Source of the DNA: Solirubrobacteraceae bacterium
Lineage (GTDB): Bacteria; Actinomycetota; Thermoleophilia; Solirubrobacterales; Solirubrobacteraceae
Length of the DNA: 47,420 bases
Direction of reading: 5' to 3'
Assembly: GCA_030690545.1 (NCBI GenBank)
Contig: JAUYGN010000089.1
Location: forward strand, 1-47,420
The position numbers and the translations under genes were made by a program. Position 1 is the stretch's first letter. Each line of letters begins with the position of its first letter. Under the pieces are notes generated by a model. The model saw nothing but the letters and a program-made list of their open reading frames with translations. It was not told the DNA's origin and did no database searches. This document shows positions 446 to 36,685 of this stretch, piece by piece.

Positions 446-3562
<3,117 letters not shown>

Positions 3563-3570
<8 letters not shown>

Positions 3571-4693
3571 GAGCGGCGATCTGGGCCAGGAAGCGGTCGA
3601 AGAGGTAGAGGCTGTCGTTCGGGCCCGGCCCGGCCTCGGGGTGGTACTGGACCGTGCCGCCGGGCACGTCGAGCAGCGTCAGGCCCTCGACCGTGCGGTC
3701 GTAGAGGTTGATGTGGCTCAGCTGGGCAGCGCCGAAGTCCGTCTCCCAGCGGACGGGCTCGTCGCCGGGGATCGTGCGCTCGCCGTTCGGGCCGAGCACG
3801 GCGAAGCCATGGTTCTGCGACGTGATCTCGATCCTGCCGGTCTGCAGGTCCTTGACCGGGTGGTTTCCGCCGCGGTGGCCGAACGGCAGCTTGAAGGTCT
3901 CAAGGCCGACGGCGCGGCACAGCAGCTGGTGGCCGAGGCAGATGCCGAAGACCGGCTTGACCCCGACGAGCTCGCGCAGCGTCGCGACGATGTCGTCGAG
4001 CGCCGCGGGGTCGCCGGGCCCGTTGGCGAGGAAGATCGCGTCGGGGTCGCCGTCGAGCAGCTGCGCCGCGCTCACCGTGCAGGGGTGCAGCTCGACGATC
4101 GCGCCGCGCTGCACGAGGTGGCGCACGATCGAGCCCTTGATGCCGGTGTCGATCGCCGCGATCCGCGGGCCGGAACCGGCGCCGTGGACGGTCATCTGCG
4201 CCGGCGTGACGACCTTCGCGAAGTCGGCGCCCTGCATCGGCGGCTCGGCGCCGATCAGCTCGCCCGCCTCGCGCTCGCTCATCGACGCCGGAAACACGCC
4301 GCCACGCATCGAGCCCGCGTCGCGGATGTGCCTGACGAGGGCGCGCGTGTCGACGGCGCTGATCGCCGGCACGCCGCAGTCGACGAGCCAGTCGAGCCAG
4401 CCGCGCTCGGCGCCGGGCGCGTCCTCGGTGTTCATCGCGGCGCGCATGATCACCGCGCGCGCCCAGATGCGCTCGGACTCCATCGCGTCCTCCGACACGC
4501 CGTAGTTGCCGATGTGCGGGTAGGTGAACGTGATGATCTGGCCGGCGAAGCTCGGGTCGGTGACGGACTCCTGGTAGCCCGACATGCCGGTCGTGAAGAC
4601 GACCTCGCCGGTCGCCGCGTCCGACGCGCCGACGGCGATCCCGTCGAAGCGGGCGCCGTCCTCGAGCAGGACGTAGGCGGTGGCGGTCATCAT
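3563..4693 (-). CDS. carA: Carbamoyl-phosphate synthase small (glutaminase) subunit
   Basis: CarA hydrolyses glutamine and channels ammonia to CarB. The 376-residue protein has the N-terminal CPSase small-chain domain (opening [16 protein letters not shown], then [15 protein letters not shown]). The C-terminal class I glutamine amidotransferase domain has nucleophile Cys252 in [10 protein letters not shown] and the His351/Glu353 pair in [11 protein letters not shown], so the catalytic triad is complete. The reading frame stays open upstream into pyrC, but homology begins at the double ATG. The first ATG (4693) overlaps the pyrC TGA by one base (TGATG) and a GGGAGC sequence precedes it. ATG 4690 is equally possible. 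The TAG stop lies just inside carB, suggesting coupled 1:1 synthesis. Confidence 0.97.
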
Positions 4694-6081: not shown

Positions 6082-7019
6082 GCGAGCTGCGGCTCGGTCG
6101 GCCGCGGGGCGCCGCGCTCGTCACGCGCGCCGGCGAGGACCTCGTAGAGGACCGCCATCCGGACGACGACGCCGGCCTTGACCTGCATCGTGATGACCGC
6201 CTGCGGCGAGTCGACGACCTCGCCGGAGAGCTCGACCCCGCGGTTGACCGGGCCGGGGTGCATGAGCACCTGGCGCGGCCCGAGCCGGCGGCCGTTGATC
6301 TGGTACTGGGCGGCGTACTCGCGCAGGCTCGGGACGAAGTGCTGATCCATCCGCTCGTGCTGCATCCGCAGCGCGTAGACGACGTCGGCCTCGCGCAGGT
6401 CGCGCAGGTCGTAGCGGACCGCGCAGCCGAGCGCCTCGATCCCGCGCGGGATCAGCGTCGGCGGGCCGCAGACCGTGACGTCGGCGCCCATCTTCTTGAA
6501 GGCGAGGATGTTCGAGCGCGCCACCCGCGAATGGGCCACGTCGCCCACGATCCAGATGTTGCGTCCCTGCAGCGATCCGAGCTTCGTCCGCAGCGTGTAG
6601 ACGTCGAGCAGCGCCTGCGTCGGGTGCTCGTGCTTGCCGTCGCCGGCGTTGACGATCGCCGCCGTCGTCCAGCTCGCGACGAGCGCCGCGGCTCCCGCGT
6701 AGGGCGTGCGGATGACGATCGCGTCGGGCGAATGCGCGGTCAGCGTCAGCACGGTGTCCTTCAGCGACTCGCCCTTCTCGACGCTCGACCCGCTCGCGGC
6801 GAAGTTCACGACGTCGGCGCTCAGCCGCTTGGCGGCCAGCTCGAACGACGAGCGCGTCCGCGTCGACGCCTCGTAGAAGAGGTTGAGCACCGTGCGGCCG
6901 CGCAGCGCCGGGACCTTCTTGATGTCGCGGTGCGAGACCTCCTCGAACGCGGCGGCACGGTCGAGGATCCGCTCGATGTCCTCGCGCGTCAGGTCGTCGA
7001 TCGAGAGCAGGTGCCTCAT
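6078..7019 (-). CDS. pyrB: Aspartate carbamoyltransferase catalytic subunit
   Basis: Condenses carbamoyl phosphate with aspartate, the committed step of pyrimidine synthesis. The 313-residue protein carries the carbamoyl-phosphate loop STRTR (residues 52-56), the HPTQALLDVYTL segment and MHPGPVNRGVEL near the C-terminus, all diagnostic for ATCase. No pyrI regulatory subunit follows, as expected when control is by PyrR. It starts at ATG 7019 overlapping the pyrR TGA by 4 nt and ends overlapping pyrC by 4 nt. Confidence 0.98.
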   Translation of the reverse strand: MRHLLSIDDLTREDIERILDRAAAFEEVSHRDIKKVPALRGRTVLNLFYEASTRTRSSFELAAKRLSADVVNFAASGSSVEKGESLKDTVLTLTAHSPDAIVIRTPYAGAAALVASWTTAAIVNAGDGKHEHPTQALLDVYTLRTKLGSLQGRNIWIVGDVAHSRVARSNILAFKKMGADVTVCGPPTLIPRGIEALGCAVRYDLRDLREADVVYALRMQHERMDQHFVPSLREYAAQYQINGRRLGPRQVLMHPGPVNRGVELSGEVVDSPQAVITMQVKAGVVVRMAVLYEVLAGARDERGAPRPTEPQLA

Positions 7020-7579
7020 GCCAGGGGCTCCGTCGTCGCGCGCGGCTGCTCGGCGATCGTCACGCAGTCGGTGCCGTCGATCTCGGTCACCTGCACGAAG
7101 ACGCGCTCGCCGCGCGCCGTCGGCAGGTTCTTGCCGACGTAGTCGGGGCGCAGCGGAAGCTCGCGGTGGCCGCGATCGGCGAGCACGGCGAGCTGGACGC
7201 GCGCCGGGCGCCCGTAGTCGAACAGCGCCTCGATCGCCGCGCGCACCGTGCGGCCCGTGAAGAGGACGTCGTCGACGATCACGATCGTGCGCCCGTCGAC
7301 GTCGAAGTCCAGGTGCGTCGCGTGGACGACCGGCGCGCCCCCGCGCAGCGTCACGTCGTCGCGGTAGAAGGCGATGTCGACGTCGCCGAGCGGGACGTCG
7401 ACGTCGTGCAGCTCGGCCAGCAGCACGCGCAGCCGCGCGGCGAGCACGGCGCCCCGACGGTGGATGCCGACGAGCGCGAGTTGGTCCGGCGCGCCCGCGT
7501 TCTCGACGATCTCGTGCGCGATGCGCGTAAGCATCCGGCGCATGTCCTCGCGGTCGAGGACGACGTTCGTGTCTGGCAT
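7016..7579 (-). CDS. pyrR: Bifunctional pyr operon RNA-binding regulator / uracil phosphoribosyltransferase
   Basis: PyrR binds pyr mRNA when UMP is high and also has uracil phosphoribosyltransferase activity. The 187-residue protein has the PRPP-binding loop IVDDVLFTGRT (about residues 101-111) and the type I PRTase fold with GIHRRGAVLA. The frame continues up to a GTG at 7603, but ATG 7579 is preferred. It is preceded by AGGAAGGAC at proper spacing, and homology starts at the VLDREDMRRML helix just after it. The Shine-Dalgarno sequence lies inside the predicted PyrR-binding hairpin, implying autoregulation of the first cistron and hence of the whole operon. Confidence 0.95.
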   Translation of the reverse strand: MPDTNVVLDREDMRRMLTRIAHEIVENAGAPDQLALVGIHRRGAVLAARLRVLLAELHDVDVPLGDVDIAFYRDDVTLRGGAPVVHATHLDFDVDGRTIVIVDDVLFTGRTVRAAIEALFDYGRPARVQLAVLADRGHRELPLRPDYVGKNLPTARGERVFVQVTEIDGTDCVTIAEQPRATTEPLA

Positions 7580-7587
7580 CGGTTGTG

Positions 7588-7620
7588 TCCTTCCTGGCCT
7601 CACCGGACCGGGTTAAAGGA
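7588..7620 (-). promoter_or_regulatory. PyrR-binding RNA hairpin overlapping the pyrR ribosome binding site
   Basis: In the transcript sense, arms TCCTT (7620-7616) and AAGGA (7592-7588) close a hairpin. A TAA-containing internal bulge and a loop bearing GTCCGGTGAGGC sit inside it. This matches the conserved PyrR-recognised loop (GTCC...GTGAGGC) known from actinobacterial pyrR leaders. The 3' arm is itself the Shine-Dalgarno sequence of pyrR, so PyrR-UMP binding would block ribosome access, giving translational rather than antiterminator control. No terminator/antiterminator pair is visible. The stem and loop are read directly; the binding role is from family knowledge. Confidence 0.8.
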
Positions 7621-7632
7621 GCGTGTGCGTCG

Positions 7633-7638
7633 AATGTA
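7633..7638 (-). promoter_or_regulatory. Probable -10 element of the pyr operon promoter
   Basis: The hexamer TACATT (minus strand) lies 13 nt upstream of the PyrR hairpin, placing the transcription start near 7626. It is one of few AT-rich hexamers in this stretch. No convincing -35 could be identified. Confidence 0.45.
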
Positions 7639-7672
7639 GCAGCGGGCCCGGCGGGGCTCGGACGCGTTCGCG

Positions 7673-8656
7673 CTACGTGGGCGATTGCAGCGGCGAGGGG
7701 GCGGCCTCCGCGCGCCGGCGTGCCTGCGACCCGCCGTCCCAGCGCACGAGCTCGGGCTCGCCGCGCTCGGGCAGCGGGATCTCGATCGTGTCGAAGTCGC
7801 GCGGGACCTCGGTGTCGGCGAAGATCTCCCGCGCCTCGTCGCGGATCGCGCCGCCGGGGTAGCGCGACGACAGATGCGTCAGCGCGAGCAGCCGGACCTC
7901 GGCGTCGGCGGCGACCTGCGCCGCCTGGCGCGCGGTGCTGTGCAGCGTCGCGGCCGCGCGATCGGCGTCCTCGTGCAGGAACGTCGCCTCGTGGACGAGG
8001 ACGTCGGCGCGGTGCGCGGCGACGACGACGGCGTCCGTCGGCGCGGTGTCGCCGGTGACGACGACCCGGCGGCCGCGACGCTGCTCGCCGACGACCTGCT
8101 CGGGCGCGACGCCGGCGACCGTCTCGCCGCGCTGCAGGCGCCCGAAGTCCGGCCCCGGCGTGACGCCCAGCCGCGTGGCGAGCTCGGCGTCGAAGCGCCC
8201 CGGGCGGGGGTCCTCGACGAGCGCGTAGCCGAACGCCGTCGCGCGATGGCGCACGGCGAACGGGACGATCTCGACATCGTCGCGGCGCACCGCCTCGCCG
8301 GCTTCCAGGTCACGGATCGTCAGGCCGTAGCGCGGCCGGCCGTAGACCGGTCGCATGCGCTCCATCAACGCCGCCGTCCCGGGCGGGCCGTGCACCGTGA
8401 GCGGCTTGTCGCGGTCGCGCAGCTCGAAGGACTTCAGCATGCCCGGCAGGCCGAGCCAGTGGTCGGCGTGCAGGTGCGTGAGGAAGACGTCGGTCAGATC
8501 GGCGAGACCGACGGAGCGCACGAGCTGGCGCTGCGTGCCCTCGCCGCAGTCGATCAGGATCCGCGCGGCGCCGCGGCGAATCAGCAGCGCCGGCAGGCCG
8601 CGCGCAGCCGAGGGAACCGAACCCGCGGTCCCGGCGAAGAAGAGCGACAGATCCAT
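7673..8656 (-). CDS. rnz: Ribonuclease Z (tRNA 3'-processing endonuclease)
   Basis: RNase Z removes the 3' trailer from tRNA precursors, needed here because the window's tRNA gene encodes no CCA. The 327-residue protein has the metallo-beta-lactamase motif HLHADH (residues 61-66), the opening FAGTAGSVPSAARGLPALL, the aspartate in VVTGDTAPTDA, and the late LTHLSSRYPG histidine, all typical of the ElaC/RNase Z group. ATG 8656 lies 7 nt from a TACCCT hexamer with no Shine-Dalgarno sequence, so the mRNA is probably leaderless. It is transcribed towards the pyr operon and away from mscL. Confidence 0.9.
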   Translation of the reverse strand: MDLSLFFAGTAGSVPSAARGLPALLIRRGAARILIDCGEGTQRQLVRSVGLADLTDVFLTHLHADHWLGLPGMLKSFELRDRDKPLTVHGPPGTAALMERMRPVYGRPRYGLTIRDLEAGEAVRRDDVEIVPFAVRHRATAFGYALVEDPRPGRFDAELATRLGVTPGPDFGRLQRGETVAGVAPEQVVGEQRRGRRVVVTGDTAPTDAVVVAAHRADVLVHEATFLHEDADRAAATLHSTARQAAQVAADAEVRLLALTHLSSRYPGGAIRDEAREIFADTEVPRDFDTIEIPLPERGEPELVRWDGGSQARRRAEAAPSPLQSPT

Positions 8657-8663
8657 GGCGGCG

Positions 8664-8669
8664 AGGGTA
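8664..8669 (-). promoter_or_regulatory. rnz: -10-like element for leaderless rnz
   Basis: TACCCT, 7 nt before the rnz ATG. The same hexamer at the same distance precedes the GTG of the phosphomannomutase at 36839, which supports both as real promoter elements. Confidence 0.55.
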
Positions 8670-8733
8670 CTGCTCGACGGTTACGGTCTCGTCGCACAGA
8701 CGTTGCGTCAATCGTCACGATGGGAGTGTCACC

Positions 8734-33259: not shown

Positions 33260-33903
33260 GGCTGCGCTCCGTTGCTCTGCTGACCGTCGCGGACGGGCTC
33301 GACGACTGCGGCCGCGCGCGAGGACCGCGACGCCTTGAGCGCCTGCGAGAGCAGCTCCTCGGCGGTCTCGGCGACGAGGTCGCGCAGCAGCTCGTCGGCC
33401 TCGACGTGGCTGAAGCCAAGCTCGACGAGCCCGTCGCGCGCGAGCCGTCGCGGGCTGTCGGCGCGCGTGATGACGATCTCCTCGTCGCCGTCGCCGTCGC
33501 CGCCGCCGACCTTCTCGCGCAGCTCGACGATGATCCGCTCGGCGGTGCGCTTGCCGATGCCGGGCACGGCCTGCAGCCGGGCGGCGTCGCCGGCCGCGAG
33601 CGCCGCGACGAGCTCGCGCGGGGTGCCTGCGCTGAGCACCGCGAGCGCGACCTTCGGGCCGACCGACTGGACGCTGATCAGCGCCAGGAACAGGTCGCGC
33701 TCCTCCTCGCTCGCGAAGCCGTACAGCGCGAGCGCGTCGTCGCGCACGACGAGATGGCTGTGCAGCGCGATCGACCCGCCGACCGCCGGCACGCGGCGCA
33801 GCGTCTCGGCCGAGACGGCGAGCCGGTAGCCGACGCCGCCCGCCAGGACGACGACGTGGTCGACACGGCGGACGGCGACCTCGCCGCGCAGCAGGGCGAT
33901 CAT
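33256..33903 (-). CDS. ruvA: Holliday junction DNA helicase RuvA
   Basis: Tetrameric junction-binding partner of RuvB. The 215-residue protein has an N-terminal OB domain (MIALLRGEVAVR...GVGYRLAVS), two helix-hairpin-helix motifs (SVQSVGPKVAL at ~100, AVPGIGKRTAERIIVEL at ~130), an acidic linker (GGDGDGDEE), and the C-terminal RuvB-binding domain (ARDGLVELGFSHVEADELL). ATG 33903 overlaps the ruvC stop as ATGA and its stop overlaps the ruvB start, so ruvC-A-B form one coupled unit. Confidence 0.97.
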   Translation of the reverse strand: MIALLRGEVAVRRVDHVVVLAGGVGYRLAVSAETLRRVPAVGGSIALHSHLVVRDDALALYGFASEEERDLFLALISVQSVGPKVALAVLSAGTPRELVAALAAGDAARLQAVPGIGKRTAERIIVELREKVGGGDGDGDEEIVITRADSPRRLARDGLVELGFSHVEADELLRDLVAETAEELLSQALKASRSSRAAAVVEPVRDGQQSNGAQP

Positions 33904-34541
33904 TCGTCCGGCGGCGATGTCGCGGGCAGGTCGCCCGTGCCGGTGATCGGACCACGCCGTCCCTCGTCGCCGCTGCCGGCGACCGGGCCGCGCGAGCCGT
34001 CGTTGCGAAACACCTGGATCTCCTCATCGGCCTGCTCGGGGACCATCATGCTCTCCGCGACGGCGGCGGCATGCGGCGCGCCGTTGAGATGGCAGATCGC
34101 GATCGCCAGCGCATCGGCGGCGTGGTCGGGCCGCGGCGGGGACTCGAGCGACAGCAGCATCTGGACCATCCGTCCGACCTGGTCCTTCTCCGCCCGCCCG
34201 GCCCCGCAGACGGCGTACTTGATCTGCTGCGGCGTGTAGGAGACGCACGGCAGGCGCCGCTGGCCGGCGGCGAGCATGACGACGCCGCGCGCCTGGCCGA
34301 CGGCCAGCGCACTGGAGACGTTGCGCCCGAAGTAGACGTCCTCCATCGAGAGGACGCTGACCTTGTGCTCGTCGAGCAGCTCGCTCACGCGGCGGTGGAT
34401 GTTCGCGAGGCGGATCTGCGGCGGAGCCTCGGGGCGGGTCGTGATGACGCCGCCGTCGAGCGCGACGAGGCGGCTGCCGCGGCGCTGCACGACGCCGAAG
34501 CCGGTGTTCGCGGTGCCGGGATCGATGCCGAGGACGATCAT
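33900..34541 (-). CDS. ruvC: Holliday junction resolvase RuvC
   Basis: A 213-residue RNase H-fold nuclease that cuts Holliday junctions. All four catalytic acids are present: Asp7 (GIDPG), Glu67 (SMEDVYF), Asp139 and Asp143 (RPDHAADALA). The C-terminal ~50 residues beyond the fold are acidic and Gly-rich (including two GTG/GSG-D-type segments), longer than in E. coli (173 aa). ATG 34541 is preferred over upstream in-frame starts, which give non-homologous sequence. CAGAAT lies 9 nt upstream, so a leaderless transcript is possible. Confidence 0.95.
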   Translation of the reverse strand: MIVLGIDPGTANTGFGVVQRRGSRLVALDGGVITTRPEAPPQIRLANIHRRVSELLDEHKVSVLSMEDVYFGRNVSSALAVGQARGVVMLAAGQRRLPCVSYTPQQIKYAVCGAGRAEKDQVGRMVQMLLSLESPPRPDHAADALAIAICHLNGAPHAAAVAESMMVPEQADEEIQVFRNDGSRGPVAGSGDEGRRGPITGTGDLPATSPPDE

Positions 34542-34576
34542 CTGACCGTGATTCTGCGCGCCGCGTCGGATGCCTC

Positions 34577-34582
34577 TACGCT
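34577..34582 (+). promoter_or_regulatory. -10-like element for the leaderless DUF3817 gene
   Basis: TACGCT, 8 nt before GTG 34591. The whole divergent ruvC/DUF3817 spacer is 49 nt, so the two promoters overlap. Confidence 0.45.
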
Positions 34583-34590
34583 TCCGGCCG

Positions 34591-34881
34591 GTGAGCCCCG
34601 AAATCATCAGGCGCCGCCTGAACGTCATCCTGCCGCTGGCAATCATCGACGCGGTCCTGCTCGTGCCGCTGCTCTTGCACCGGTTCGCGGATCTCGACAT
34701 CCCCGTGTTCCCGATCGGCATGACGCACGGCCTGCTGTTCATCGCGCTGGTCGCGCTGTGCGCGAAGGGCGCCTACGACCGGCTCTGGGGCTGGTGGTTC
34801 CCGGCGGTCACGGTCGTCACGGGCGGACCGCTGGGGTCGCTCGTCGGCGACGTCGTCATCCGGCGCAGGCTGAACAGCTAA
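34591..34881 (+). CDS. DUF3817 family small membrane protein
   Basis: A 96-residue integral membrane protein with three helices (LNVILPLAIIDAVLLVPLLL, GMTHGLLFIALVALCAKGAY, WWFPAVTVVTGGPLGSLVGDVVI). The order and the central HGLLF match DUF3817, an actinobacterial family of unknown function. GTG 34591 is chosen over ATG 34570 because TACGCT lies 8 nt upstream of the GTG. It is divergent from ruvC and precedes the cyclase gene. Confidence 0.7.
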   Translation: MSPEIIRRRLNVILPLAIIDAVLLVPLLLHRFADLDIPVFPIGMTHGLLFIALVALCAKGAYDRLWGWWFPAVTVVTGGPLGSLVGDVVIRRRLNS

Positions 34882-34902: not shown

Positions 34903-34956
34903 ATGGCCCTCTTCGACGACACGCTCGAACTGGTCACGCGGCACAGGCACGGCTGA
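34903..34956 (+). CDS. Possible 17-residue leader ORF overlapping the cyclase start
   Basis: ATG 34903 opens a 17-codon frame (MALFDDTLELVTRHRHG) whose TGA overlaps the cyclase ATG by one base (TGATG). It could couple cyclase translation to that of a short upstream peptide. There is no clear Shine-Dalgarno sequence and no homology is recognised, so chance is possible. Confidence 0.25.
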   Translation: MALFDDTLELVTRHRHG

Positions 34957-35933
34957 TGCGCCGCTCGGTCGATCGCAAGGCCGAGGACCCGCTCGACGAG
35001 GTCGAGGGACCCGCGCGCGAGACGCGCTACAGCGCACGCGAGATCGCCGCGCAGGCCGGCGTCGACGTCGGGCTCGTCGTCGACGCGCACGCGGCGCTCG
35101 GGCTGGCGCGCGTCGATCCTCAGGCACGCTGCCTCGGCGAGGCCGACCTCGCGCTGGCGCGGCGCCTGCGGGCCGCGCTCGACGCGGGTCTGCCGGCCGA
35201 GCGCGTGATCGACGTCAACCGCGTCATCGGACGGGCGATGGCGCAGGTCGCCACCGCCGCGCGGCTGCTCGACGGCGACGCGAGCGCCGGCCGGCCGCCG
35301 GCGCCGCAGGCGGAGCGCATGACGACGGCCGTGCAGGCGCTGGCGCCGTCGCTCGAGCATGCGCTGTCGCTGCACCTGCGCGAGCTCGGCCGCAGCGACA
35401 CGCTCGACGCCGCCGCGCTGGCGAGCGGGGCGCCGGTCAGCGTCGGCTTCGCGGATCTCGTCGGGCTGGGCTGGCTGGGCGGTGAGCTGCCGGCCGACGA
35501 GCTCGGCCGCGTCGCGCGGCGCTTGGAGGATCTCGCCGGCAGCGCGCTGCAGCCGCCCGTGCGGATGGTCAAGACGGTCTGCGACGCGGTGATGCTCGTC
35601 TCCCCCGGCCCGGCGGCGCTCGTGCGCTCGCTGCTGGAGCTCGTCGAGGCGGCGGGCGCGGAGGACGAGGGCTTCCCGCGCCTGCGCGCCGGCGTCGCCT
35701 CGGGCGACGCGCGCGAGCTCAACGGCGACGTCTACGGACGCGCCGTCACGATCGCCGGCCGCCTGACGGCGATCGCCCGGCCGGGCAGCGTGCTCGTCGA
35801 CGCTGCGACGCACGACGCCGTCGGCCGCGATCTCGCGTGGTCGTTCGCCGGCGAGCGCCGGATCAAGGGCCTGCCCGGCGGGCACAAGCTGTTTCGCGCT
35901 CGCCGGCCGCCGCCGGCGCGCCCGGCCGGGTAG
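34956..35933 (+). CDS. Class III adenylate cyclase with Rv1264-type regulatory domain and altered catalytic residue
   Basis: A 325-residue soluble cyclase. Residues ~22-110 form the helical autoinhibitory domain known from pH-sensing Rv1264 (YSAREIAAQAGVDVGLVV...). Residues ~160-315 are the class III catalytic domain. By alignment to Rv1264: metal Asp167 (FADLVG) and Asp210 (KTVCDAVML), adenine-specifying Lys206 and Asp258 (NGDVYG), and Arg269 are present. The transition-state Asn of the VNxAxR motif is Thr265 (VTIAGR), and the usual GD before the second metal site reads CD. Activity may be reduced or differently tuned. ATG 34956 overlaps a short upstream ORF. It ends 2 nt from the convergent yebC. 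Confidence 0.85.
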   Translation: MRRSVDRKAEDPLDEVEGPARETRYSAREIAAQAGVDVGLVVDAHAALGLARVDPQARCLGEADLALARRLRAALDAGLPAERVIDVNRVIGRAMAQVATAARLLDGDASAGRPPAPQAERMTTAVQALAPSLEHALSLHLRELGRSDTLDAAALASGAPVSVGFADLVGLGWLGGELPADELGRVARRLEDLAGSALQPPVRMVKTVCDAVMLVSPGPAALVRSLLELVEAAGAEDEGFPRLRAGVASGDARELNGDVYGRAVTIAGRLTAIARPGSVLVDAATHDAVGRDLAWSFAGERRIKGLPGGHKLFRARRPPPARPAG

Positions 35934-35935
35934 CG

Positions 35936-36685
35936 CTATCCCACGACGCGCTCGAGCACGTCGGCGTCGATGTCGAAGTTCGCGTGCACCGCGTCGACGT
36001 CGTCGTTGTCCTCGAGCGCGTCGATCAGCCGCATGAGCTTGGCCGCGTCGCCCTCGGCGACGGGGACGCGGGCCTTCGGCAGCCAGGCCAGCTCGGCCGA
36101 TCGCAGCTCGATCTCGGCCTGCTCGAGCGCGGCGCGCACGGAGGTCAGGTCGGTCGGCTCGGTCGTGACCTCGAAGATGCCGTCCTCGGCCGCGATGTCC
36201 TGCGCGCCGGCCTCGATCGCCGGCAGCAGATCGTCCTCGCCGTAGCGCTCGCCGTCGATCAGGATCAGCCCGCGCTTGTCGAACAGGTAGGAGACCGAGC
36301 CGGGCTCGCCGAGGCTCCCGCCGTGCTTGGTCAGCAGGTAGCGCACGTCGGCACCGGTGCGGTTGCGGTTCTCGGTCATCGCCTCGATCAGCAGCGCCAC
36401 GCCGCCGGGTCCGTAGCCCTCGTACATGACGTCCTCGATCGCCGCCGCGTCGGCACCGGCGCCGGTGCCCTTGGCGATCGCGCGCTCGATGTTGTCCTTC
36501 GGCATCGACGCGTCCTTCGCCTTCTGGACGGCGAGCTGCAGCGACGGGTTGCCCTCGAGCTCGCCGCCGCCGTCGCGGGCGGCGGTCGTGATCGCGCGGG
36601 CGAGCTTCGTGAACAGCTTGCCGCGCCGCGAGTCGACGACCGCCTTCTTGTGCTTGATCGACGCCCATTTTGAGTGCCCGGACAT
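35936..36685 (-). CDS. yebC: YebC/PmpR family protein
   Basis: A 249-residue protein of the universal YebC family, described both as a transcription regulator and recently as a factor that relieves ribosome stalling at proline stretches. The start MSGHSKWASIKHKKAVVDSRRGKLFTKLARAI is diagnostic, followed by NIERAIAKGTG, YEGYGPGGVALLIE and TENRNRTGADVRYLLTKHGG. ATG 36685 has TAGACT 8 nt upstream and no Shine-Dalgarno sequence, so it is probably leaderless. The yebC-ruvCAB neighbourhood is conserved, but here it is interrupted by the cyclase and DUF3817 genes on the other strand. Confidence 0.95.
   Translation of the reverse strand: MSGHSKWASIKHKKAVVDSRRGKLFTKLARAITTAARDGGGELEGNPSLQLAVQKAKDASMPKDNIERAIAKGTGAGADAAAIEDVMYEGYGPGGVALLIEAMTENRNRTGADVRYLLTKHGGSLGEPGSVSYLFDKRGLILIDGERYGEDDLLPAIEAGAQDIAAEDGIFEVTTEPTDLTSVRAALEQAEIELRSAELAWLPKARVPVAEGDAAKLMRLIDALEDNDDVDAVHANFDIDADVLERVVG

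What the first reader, a model, noticed from the sequence alone, without database searches (positions are those of the whole stretch)
34956..35933. Rv1264-type adenylate cyclase with Thr at the transition-state Asn position
Spacing relative to Rv1264 keeps both metal aspartates, the Lys/Asp adenine pair and the Arg, but the Asn that stabilises the transition state is Thr265 and the residue before the second metal Asp is Cys. The enzyme may be weak, regulated differently, or act mainly as a sensor or ligand-binding protein.
Basis: partly seen in the sequence, partly recalled or inferred. Interest (0 to 1): 0.6.

Follow-up and report, generated by a model that had tools for sequence, protein, structure and literature searches.

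The report
Eroded Rv1264-type adenylate cyclase, probable pseudoenzyme
A soil-actinobacterium gene descended from a cAMP-making enzyme has lost several normally unchanging parts of its active site and some of its control domain while staying an intact gene, so it is probably a worn-out or repurposed copy, and none of the six other genomes of its genus that could be searched has a copy.

Summary
The 325-aa ORF (34956-35933, +) aligns with Rv1264 over residues 23-318. It keeps both metal aspartates (D167, D210), the K206/D258 adenine pair and R269, and it has T265 for the transition-state Asn and C209 before the second metal Asp. No alternative alignment restores the Asn.

All 121 aligned relatives with letters there carry Asn and Gly at those two positions. 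The window protein also departs at F171L, T172G (FADLVGFT to FADLVGLG), R255L, S268G and others. It has four in-frame deletions (40, 2, 4 and 5 codons) in the regulatory domain and linker. It alone of 23 sampled relatives fails the Pfam cyclase profile.

The gene sits at the family's ruvC-yebC site. No orthologue was found in six other genomes of its genus, and five of them lack it at that site. Yet frame, codon bias, predicted fold and overall rate look ordinary.

Best reading: a vertically inherited Rv1264-type cyclase that is catalytically crippled, near loss or kept as a pseudoenzyme. Thr265 alone does not prove inactivity: Ma1120 (Ala there) is active and loses activity when Asn is put in. 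No assay data exist.

The parts
34956..35933 (+). Degenerate Rv1264-type adenylate cyclase ORF, 325 aa
   Evidence: GC by codon position 84/55/95, like neighbouring genes; AF2 model pLDDT 88.9, VIA Z 26.0 to Rv1264 active state 1y11
35019..35381 (+). Ad_Cy_reg regulatory domain (PF16701), residues 22-142; profile positions 56-183 only
   Evidence: 55.7 bits (cut-off 28.6)
35022..35027 (+). Junction of a 40-codon in-frame deletion (after residue 23) removing the segment after the first regulatory helix
35280..35285 (+). Junction of a 2-codon in-frame deletion (after residue 109)
35340..35345 (+). Junction of a 4-codon in-frame deletion (after residue 129)
35430..35435 (+). Junction of a 5-codon in-frame deletion of the LPGAR linker between regulatory and catalytic domains (after residue 159)
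35433..35909 (+). Class III cyclase homology domain, residues 160-318
   Evidence: PF00211 only 16.9 bits, below cut-off 21.9
35454..35456 (+). D167, first metal aspartate (kept)
35466..35471 (+). L171 G172 in place of F/Y and T of FADLVGFT
   Evidence: T in 119 of 120 relatives with letters, F or Y in 120 of 120
35571..35573 (+). K206, adenine-pair lysine (kept)
35580..35582 (+). C209 (TGC) in place of invariant Gly
   Evidence: G in 121 of 121
35583..35585 (+). D210, second metal aspartate (kept)
35718..35720 (+). L255 in place of near-invariant Arg
   Evidence: R in 115 of 121
35727..35729 (+). D258, adenine-pair aspartate (kept)
35748..35750 (+). T265 (ACG) in place of transition-state Asn
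   Evidence: N in 121 of 121
35757..35759 (+). G268 in place of near-invariant Ser
   Evidence: S in 108 and A in 11 of 121
35760..35762 (+). R269, transition-state arginine (kept)
33900..34541 (-). ruvC, flanking marker of the family-conserved site
   Evidence: start inferred from the MIVLGIDPG motif
34570..34881 (+). 103-aa conserved ORF next to ruvC in the genus
35936..36685 (-). yebC, flanking marker, convergent with the cyclase

Best explanation
The gene is the vertically inherited, ruvC-yebC-linked Rv1264-type adenylate cyclase of a Solirubrobacteraceae-type actinobacterial lineage, and its catalytic site has decayed. Shown by sequence: metal ligands, adenine-specifying pair and catalytic Arg kept; transition-state Asn, end of the FADLVGFT motif, the Gly before the second metal Asp and nearby invariant residues lost; regulatory domain and inter-domain linker shortened by in-frame deletions; orthologue not found in six other genus genomes. 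Inferred: it is still made as a folded protein and may bind metal-ATP, but makes cAMP weakly or not at all. It is either close to being lost or kept for a non-catalytic role, while the genome's other cyclase (G000:C120), with a complete residue set, can supply cAMP to its cNMP-binding proteins.
For: Unique losses at sites invariant in relatives: N265T and G209C (121 of 121), T172G (119 of 120). Among 112 sequences it has the most violations (3 of 15) at catalytic-domain sites conserved in 98% or more; median 0. It is the only one of 23 relatives without a PF00211 match at 1e-3 and is below the Pfam cut-off. 51 codons lost in frame. Orthologues at the same ruvC-yebC site in other genera. In the family search 86 of 146 genomes match at E<=1e-30, and none of the six other genomes of its genus does; five of these have the site assembled without a cyclase. 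The marker tree implies at least two losses in the genus if the gene was ancestral. Second cyclase with all key residues; three cNMP-binding proteins.
Against: The residues most often called essential (two Asp, Lys, Asp, Arg) are intact. Asn is dispensable in known active cyclases (PMC4215837, PMC4886424). Overall rate is ordinary (root-to-tip 1.27 against median 1.18; 36 of 112 rows longer), codon bias is full and the predicted fold is confident, so neutral decay is not visible. No activity data.
Confidence: 0.6

Rival explanations
1. It is a working adenylate (or mixed adenylate/guanylate) cyclase with a re-tuned active site, in which Thr265 and other compensating changes replace the canonical Asn chemistry, and altered regulation follows from the shortened N-terminal domain.
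For: Metal Asps, Lys/Asp pair and Arg kept. Ma1120 has Ala at this position, is active, and A164N drastically reduces activity; Rv1900c has His there. Intact frame, codon bias, fold and ordinary overall rate.
Against: Loss also of T172, the Gly before the metal Asp, R255 and S268; failure of the catalytic Pfam profile; absence of the gene from sister species.
Confidence: 0.22
2. It is a retained pseudocyclase that acts by binding ATP/metal or a ligand of the Ad_Cy_reg domain, for example as a sensor or as a dimer partner of another protein.
For: Selective loss of catalytic positions with the rest of the domain at ordinary divergence. Mclx2 and Mclx3 of M. tuberculosis are proposed to be ATP/cAMP-responsive cyclase-domain proteins lacking canonical residues (PMC4452763). 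MerR-like HTH match in 5 of 23 relatives.
Against: No partner gene in the immediate neighbourhood, no close relative in which conservation of the altered form can be shown, and the gene is absent from sister species.
Confidence: 0.15
3. It is an assembly or sequencing artefact.
For: The genome is a fragmented draft of 149 contigs.
Against: Flanking genes match sister-species order; several altered codons need two base changes (T265 ACG from AAC/AAT, L171 CTG from TTC/TTT, G172 GGC from ACN) and all indels are in frame.
Confidence: 0.02

Closest known systems
Rv1264 of Mycobacterium tuberculosis (PDB 1y10, 1y11)
   Same: Domain order Ad_Cy_reg plus class III catalytic domain; 23-318 aligned at E 6e-48; model Z 26.0 over 301 residues; metal Asps, Lys/Asp pair and Arg kept
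   Different: Asn319 is Thr265, Gly before D265 is Cys209, FADLVGFT ends LG; 40-codon deletion in the N-terminal domain and 5-codon linker deletion
Syntenic orthologue in G008 (L003), same family
   Same: Same ruvC-yebC site, 47% identity, sister in the tree (98% SH-aLRT)
   Different: Catalytic residues canonical, full N-terminal domain
Ma1120 of Mycobacterium avium and Rv1900c of M. tuberculosis
   Same: Class III cyclases without the transition-state Asn but with the Arg (Ala164, His); similar catalytic fold, Z about 23
   Different: No Ad_Cy_reg domain found in these chains; only 24-27% identical; Ala or His rather than Thr
Mclx2 and Mclx3 of M. tuberculosis
   Same: Cyclase homology domains lacking the transition-state Asn, proposed to be regulators rather than cyclases (PMC4452763)
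   Different: Different architecture (cyclase, NB-ARC and LuxR domains); they also lack the substrate-selecting residues

Membership tests
Rv1264-type adenylate cyclase (by descent) | Ad_Cy_reg domain before the catalytic domain | tested here: met
   PF16701 55.7 bits, cut-off 28.6, though profile positions 1-55 are not matched
Rv1264-type adenylate cyclase (by descent) | Homology and fold of Rv1264 over both domains | tested here: met
   E 6e-48; VIA Z 26.0, 301 residues, rmsd 4.9
Rv1264-type adenylate cyclase (by descent) | Orthologous position in related genomes | tested here: met
   ruvC-cyclase-yebC in several genera of the family
Rv1264-type adenylate cyclase (by descent) | Complete N-terminal regulatory domain | tested here: not met
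   40-codon in-frame deletion after residue 23, smaller ones after 109, 129 and 159
Functional class III adenylate cyclase | Two metal-binding aspartates | tested here: met
   D167, D210
Functional class III adenylate cyclase | Lys/Asp adenine-specifying pair | tested here: met
   K206, D258
Functional class III adenylate cyclase | Asn/Arg transition-state pair | tested here: not met
   R269 kept, Asn is T265
Functional class III adenylate cyclase | Match to PF00211 above curated cut-off | tested here: not met
   16.9 bits against 21.9; only one of 23 relatives to fail at 1e-3
Functional class III adenylate cyclase | cAMP formation | not testable with these tools
   needs an enzyme assay

The most novel reading that the evidence does not exclude
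A class III cyclase scaffold in which catalysis was given up selectively, with the metal- and ATP-specifying residues kept, to become a non-catalytic nucleotide- or ligand-responsive regulator, with a MerR-like helix-turn-helix region of its Ad_Cy_reg domain now near the N-terminus.
Probability: 0.1. Interest if true: 0.5.

Novelty: new variant of a known kind. Interest (0 to 1): 0.3.

Why it matters
It is one clear natural case of a bacterial signalling enzyme losing its catalytic signature site by site while the fold and reading frame persist, in a genus where the gene is otherwise missing. It offers a natural set (canonical, eroded, absent) at one chromosomal site for asking which class III residues go first and whether a cyclase body can have a non-catalytic job. 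It also corrects a common shortcut: lack of the transition-state Asn alone does not mean an inactive cyclase.

Tried and rejected
Alternative alignment restoring Asn: none; the GDxYGxxVN block aligns without gaps in the relatives. Assembly or frameshift artefact: rejected from codons, in-frame indels and conserved flanks. Hidden upstream N-terminus in another frame: three frames were scored against relatives' N-termini; the ORF's own frame scored best for most relatives, matching the first conserved helix (the script stopped with an error after printing these results). General fast evolution as the cause: root-to-tip length is ordinary. First genome-contig scan with the single protein found nothing; the second used patterns that demand Gly and Asn, so its hits were used for names and folding only, not for residue statistics. 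First alignment script misread minus-strand loci and was redone.

Full report
OBSERVATION. The 325-aa ORF at 34956-35933 (+) is intact. Pfam finds the adenylate cyclase regulatory domain Ad_Cy_reg at 55.7 bits (cut-off 28.6) but the catalytic domain PF00211 at only 16.9 bits, below its cut-off of 21.9. The best solved relative is Rv1264, E 6e-48, residues 23-318. In that alignment D167, D210, K206, D258 and R269 match the metal Asps, adenine pair and Arg; T265 stands at the transition-state Asn and C209 before the second metal Asp.

HOW UNUSUAL. The protein was searched in 61 relatives, the genus and 146 family genomes. In 122 matched relatives aligned (a few repeated between overlapping loci), every one with letters there, 121 of 121, has Asn at 265 and Gly at 209. 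Also lost are T172 (T in 119 of 120), F171 (F/Y in 120 of 120), R255 (115 of 121) and S268 (S in 108, A in 11). After removing repeats and poor rows (112 rows including the window protein), it breaks 3 of 15 catalytic-domain sites conserved in at least 98% of the others, the highest count; the median is 0. Of 23 relatives scanned, it alone has no PF00211 match at 1e-3.

DELETIONS. Relatives start with a conserved DFEAEGLLxGLEGxAR helix followed by about 40 residues before RYTAxE. The window protein keeps a recognisable version of the helix (SVDRKAEDPLDEVEGPARE, matched in the ORF's own frame) and then jumps to RYSAREI. In alignment A1 four deletions are seen: 40, 2, 4 and 5 codons, the last being the LPGAR linker before the catalytic domain; all are in frame and no insertions are seen. 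Rv1264's N-terminal domain is described as autoinhibitory (title of Linder et al. 2002, seen in reference lists), so regulation is expected to differ; this is inference.

STILL A CODING GENE. GC by codon position is 84/55/95, like RuvA (82/47/95), and GC3 stays at 91-99% in windows along the gene. The AlphaFold2 model has pLDDT 88.9 and aligns to active-state Rv1264 with Z 26.0 over 301 residues. Its root-to-tip length in the tree is 1.27 against a median of 1.18 (36 of 112 rows longer), though its end branch of 0.62 is the fourth longest. In-frame indels in a high-GC genome are only modest evidence for selection, and no close relative was available for dN/dS.

LOCUS AND HISTORY. In several other genera of the family the orthologue sits at the same place between ruvC and yebC (L003, L006, L017, L018, L022 and others), and the tree joins the window protein to one of these, L003, at 98% SH-aLRT. 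Eighty-six of 146 family genomes have a match at E<=1e-30, yet of the seven genomes of the window's genus only the window's own does. Five genus-mates have the site assembled: G001, G003 and G006 have the neighbours with only a short gap; G002 and G004 carry another gene there; none has a cyclase. A marker tree places the window's genome beside G002/G003 (88/86), so if the gene was ancestral there were at least two losses in the genus. A loss followed by a regain is not excluded. By names of matching records these are Solirubrobacteraceae-type actinobacteria.

CELL CONTEXT. The genome holds one other PF00211 protein, a 173-aa cyclase domain with FADLVGFT, VKNLGD and the VN..AR block complete, and three cNMP-binding-domain proteins. 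So cAMP signalling may go on without this gene.

FUNCTION. Asn is not strictly required: Ma1120 has Ala at the position, is active, and A164N drastically cut activity (PMC4215837); Rv1900c has His (PMC4886424). So T265 alone would not settle the matter. The combination of lost positions beside both metal Asps and in the Asn/Arg helix makes a crippled enzyme the likeliest reading (0.6). A re-tuned active cyclase (0.22) and a retained pseudocyclase with a regulatory role (0.15) remain open. Precedent for suspected non-catalytic cyclase-domain proteins exists in Mclx2/Mclx3 (PMC4452763).

VERDICT. By descent this is an Rv1264-type cyclase; as a functional adenylate cyclase it fails two tested features (Asn/Arg pair, PF00211 cut-off) and is not filed as one. 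Interest 0.3: a clean case of catalytic erosion, not a new kind of system.

Noticed in passing
window 34904-34957 (+): A 17-codon mini-ORF (MALFDDTLELVTRHRHG) ends in a TGA that overlaps the cyclase start codon, a pattern seen in translational coupling; it may be chance.
   Followed up: no
L077 (G004) about 1558-4038 and L076 (G002) 6806-8707: In two sister species the ruvC-yebC interval carries a 600-800-aa ORF that reads like a PEP-synthase/pyruvate-phosphate-dikinase-type protein where the cyclase would be, so the site looks variable within the genus. The family name is from reading the sequence, not a database search.
   Followed up: partly
window 34570-34881 (+): A 103-aa, probably membrane-spanning ORF of unknown function next to ruvC is conserved (77-82% identity) in four of the five sister species whose site was read.
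   Followed up: partly
alignment A1, relatives of the window 34956-35933 protein: Five of 23 relatives match the MerR_1 helix-turn-helix profile (best E 2e-4), hinting that the Ad_Cy_reg domain contains a MerR-like winged helix.
   Followed up: no
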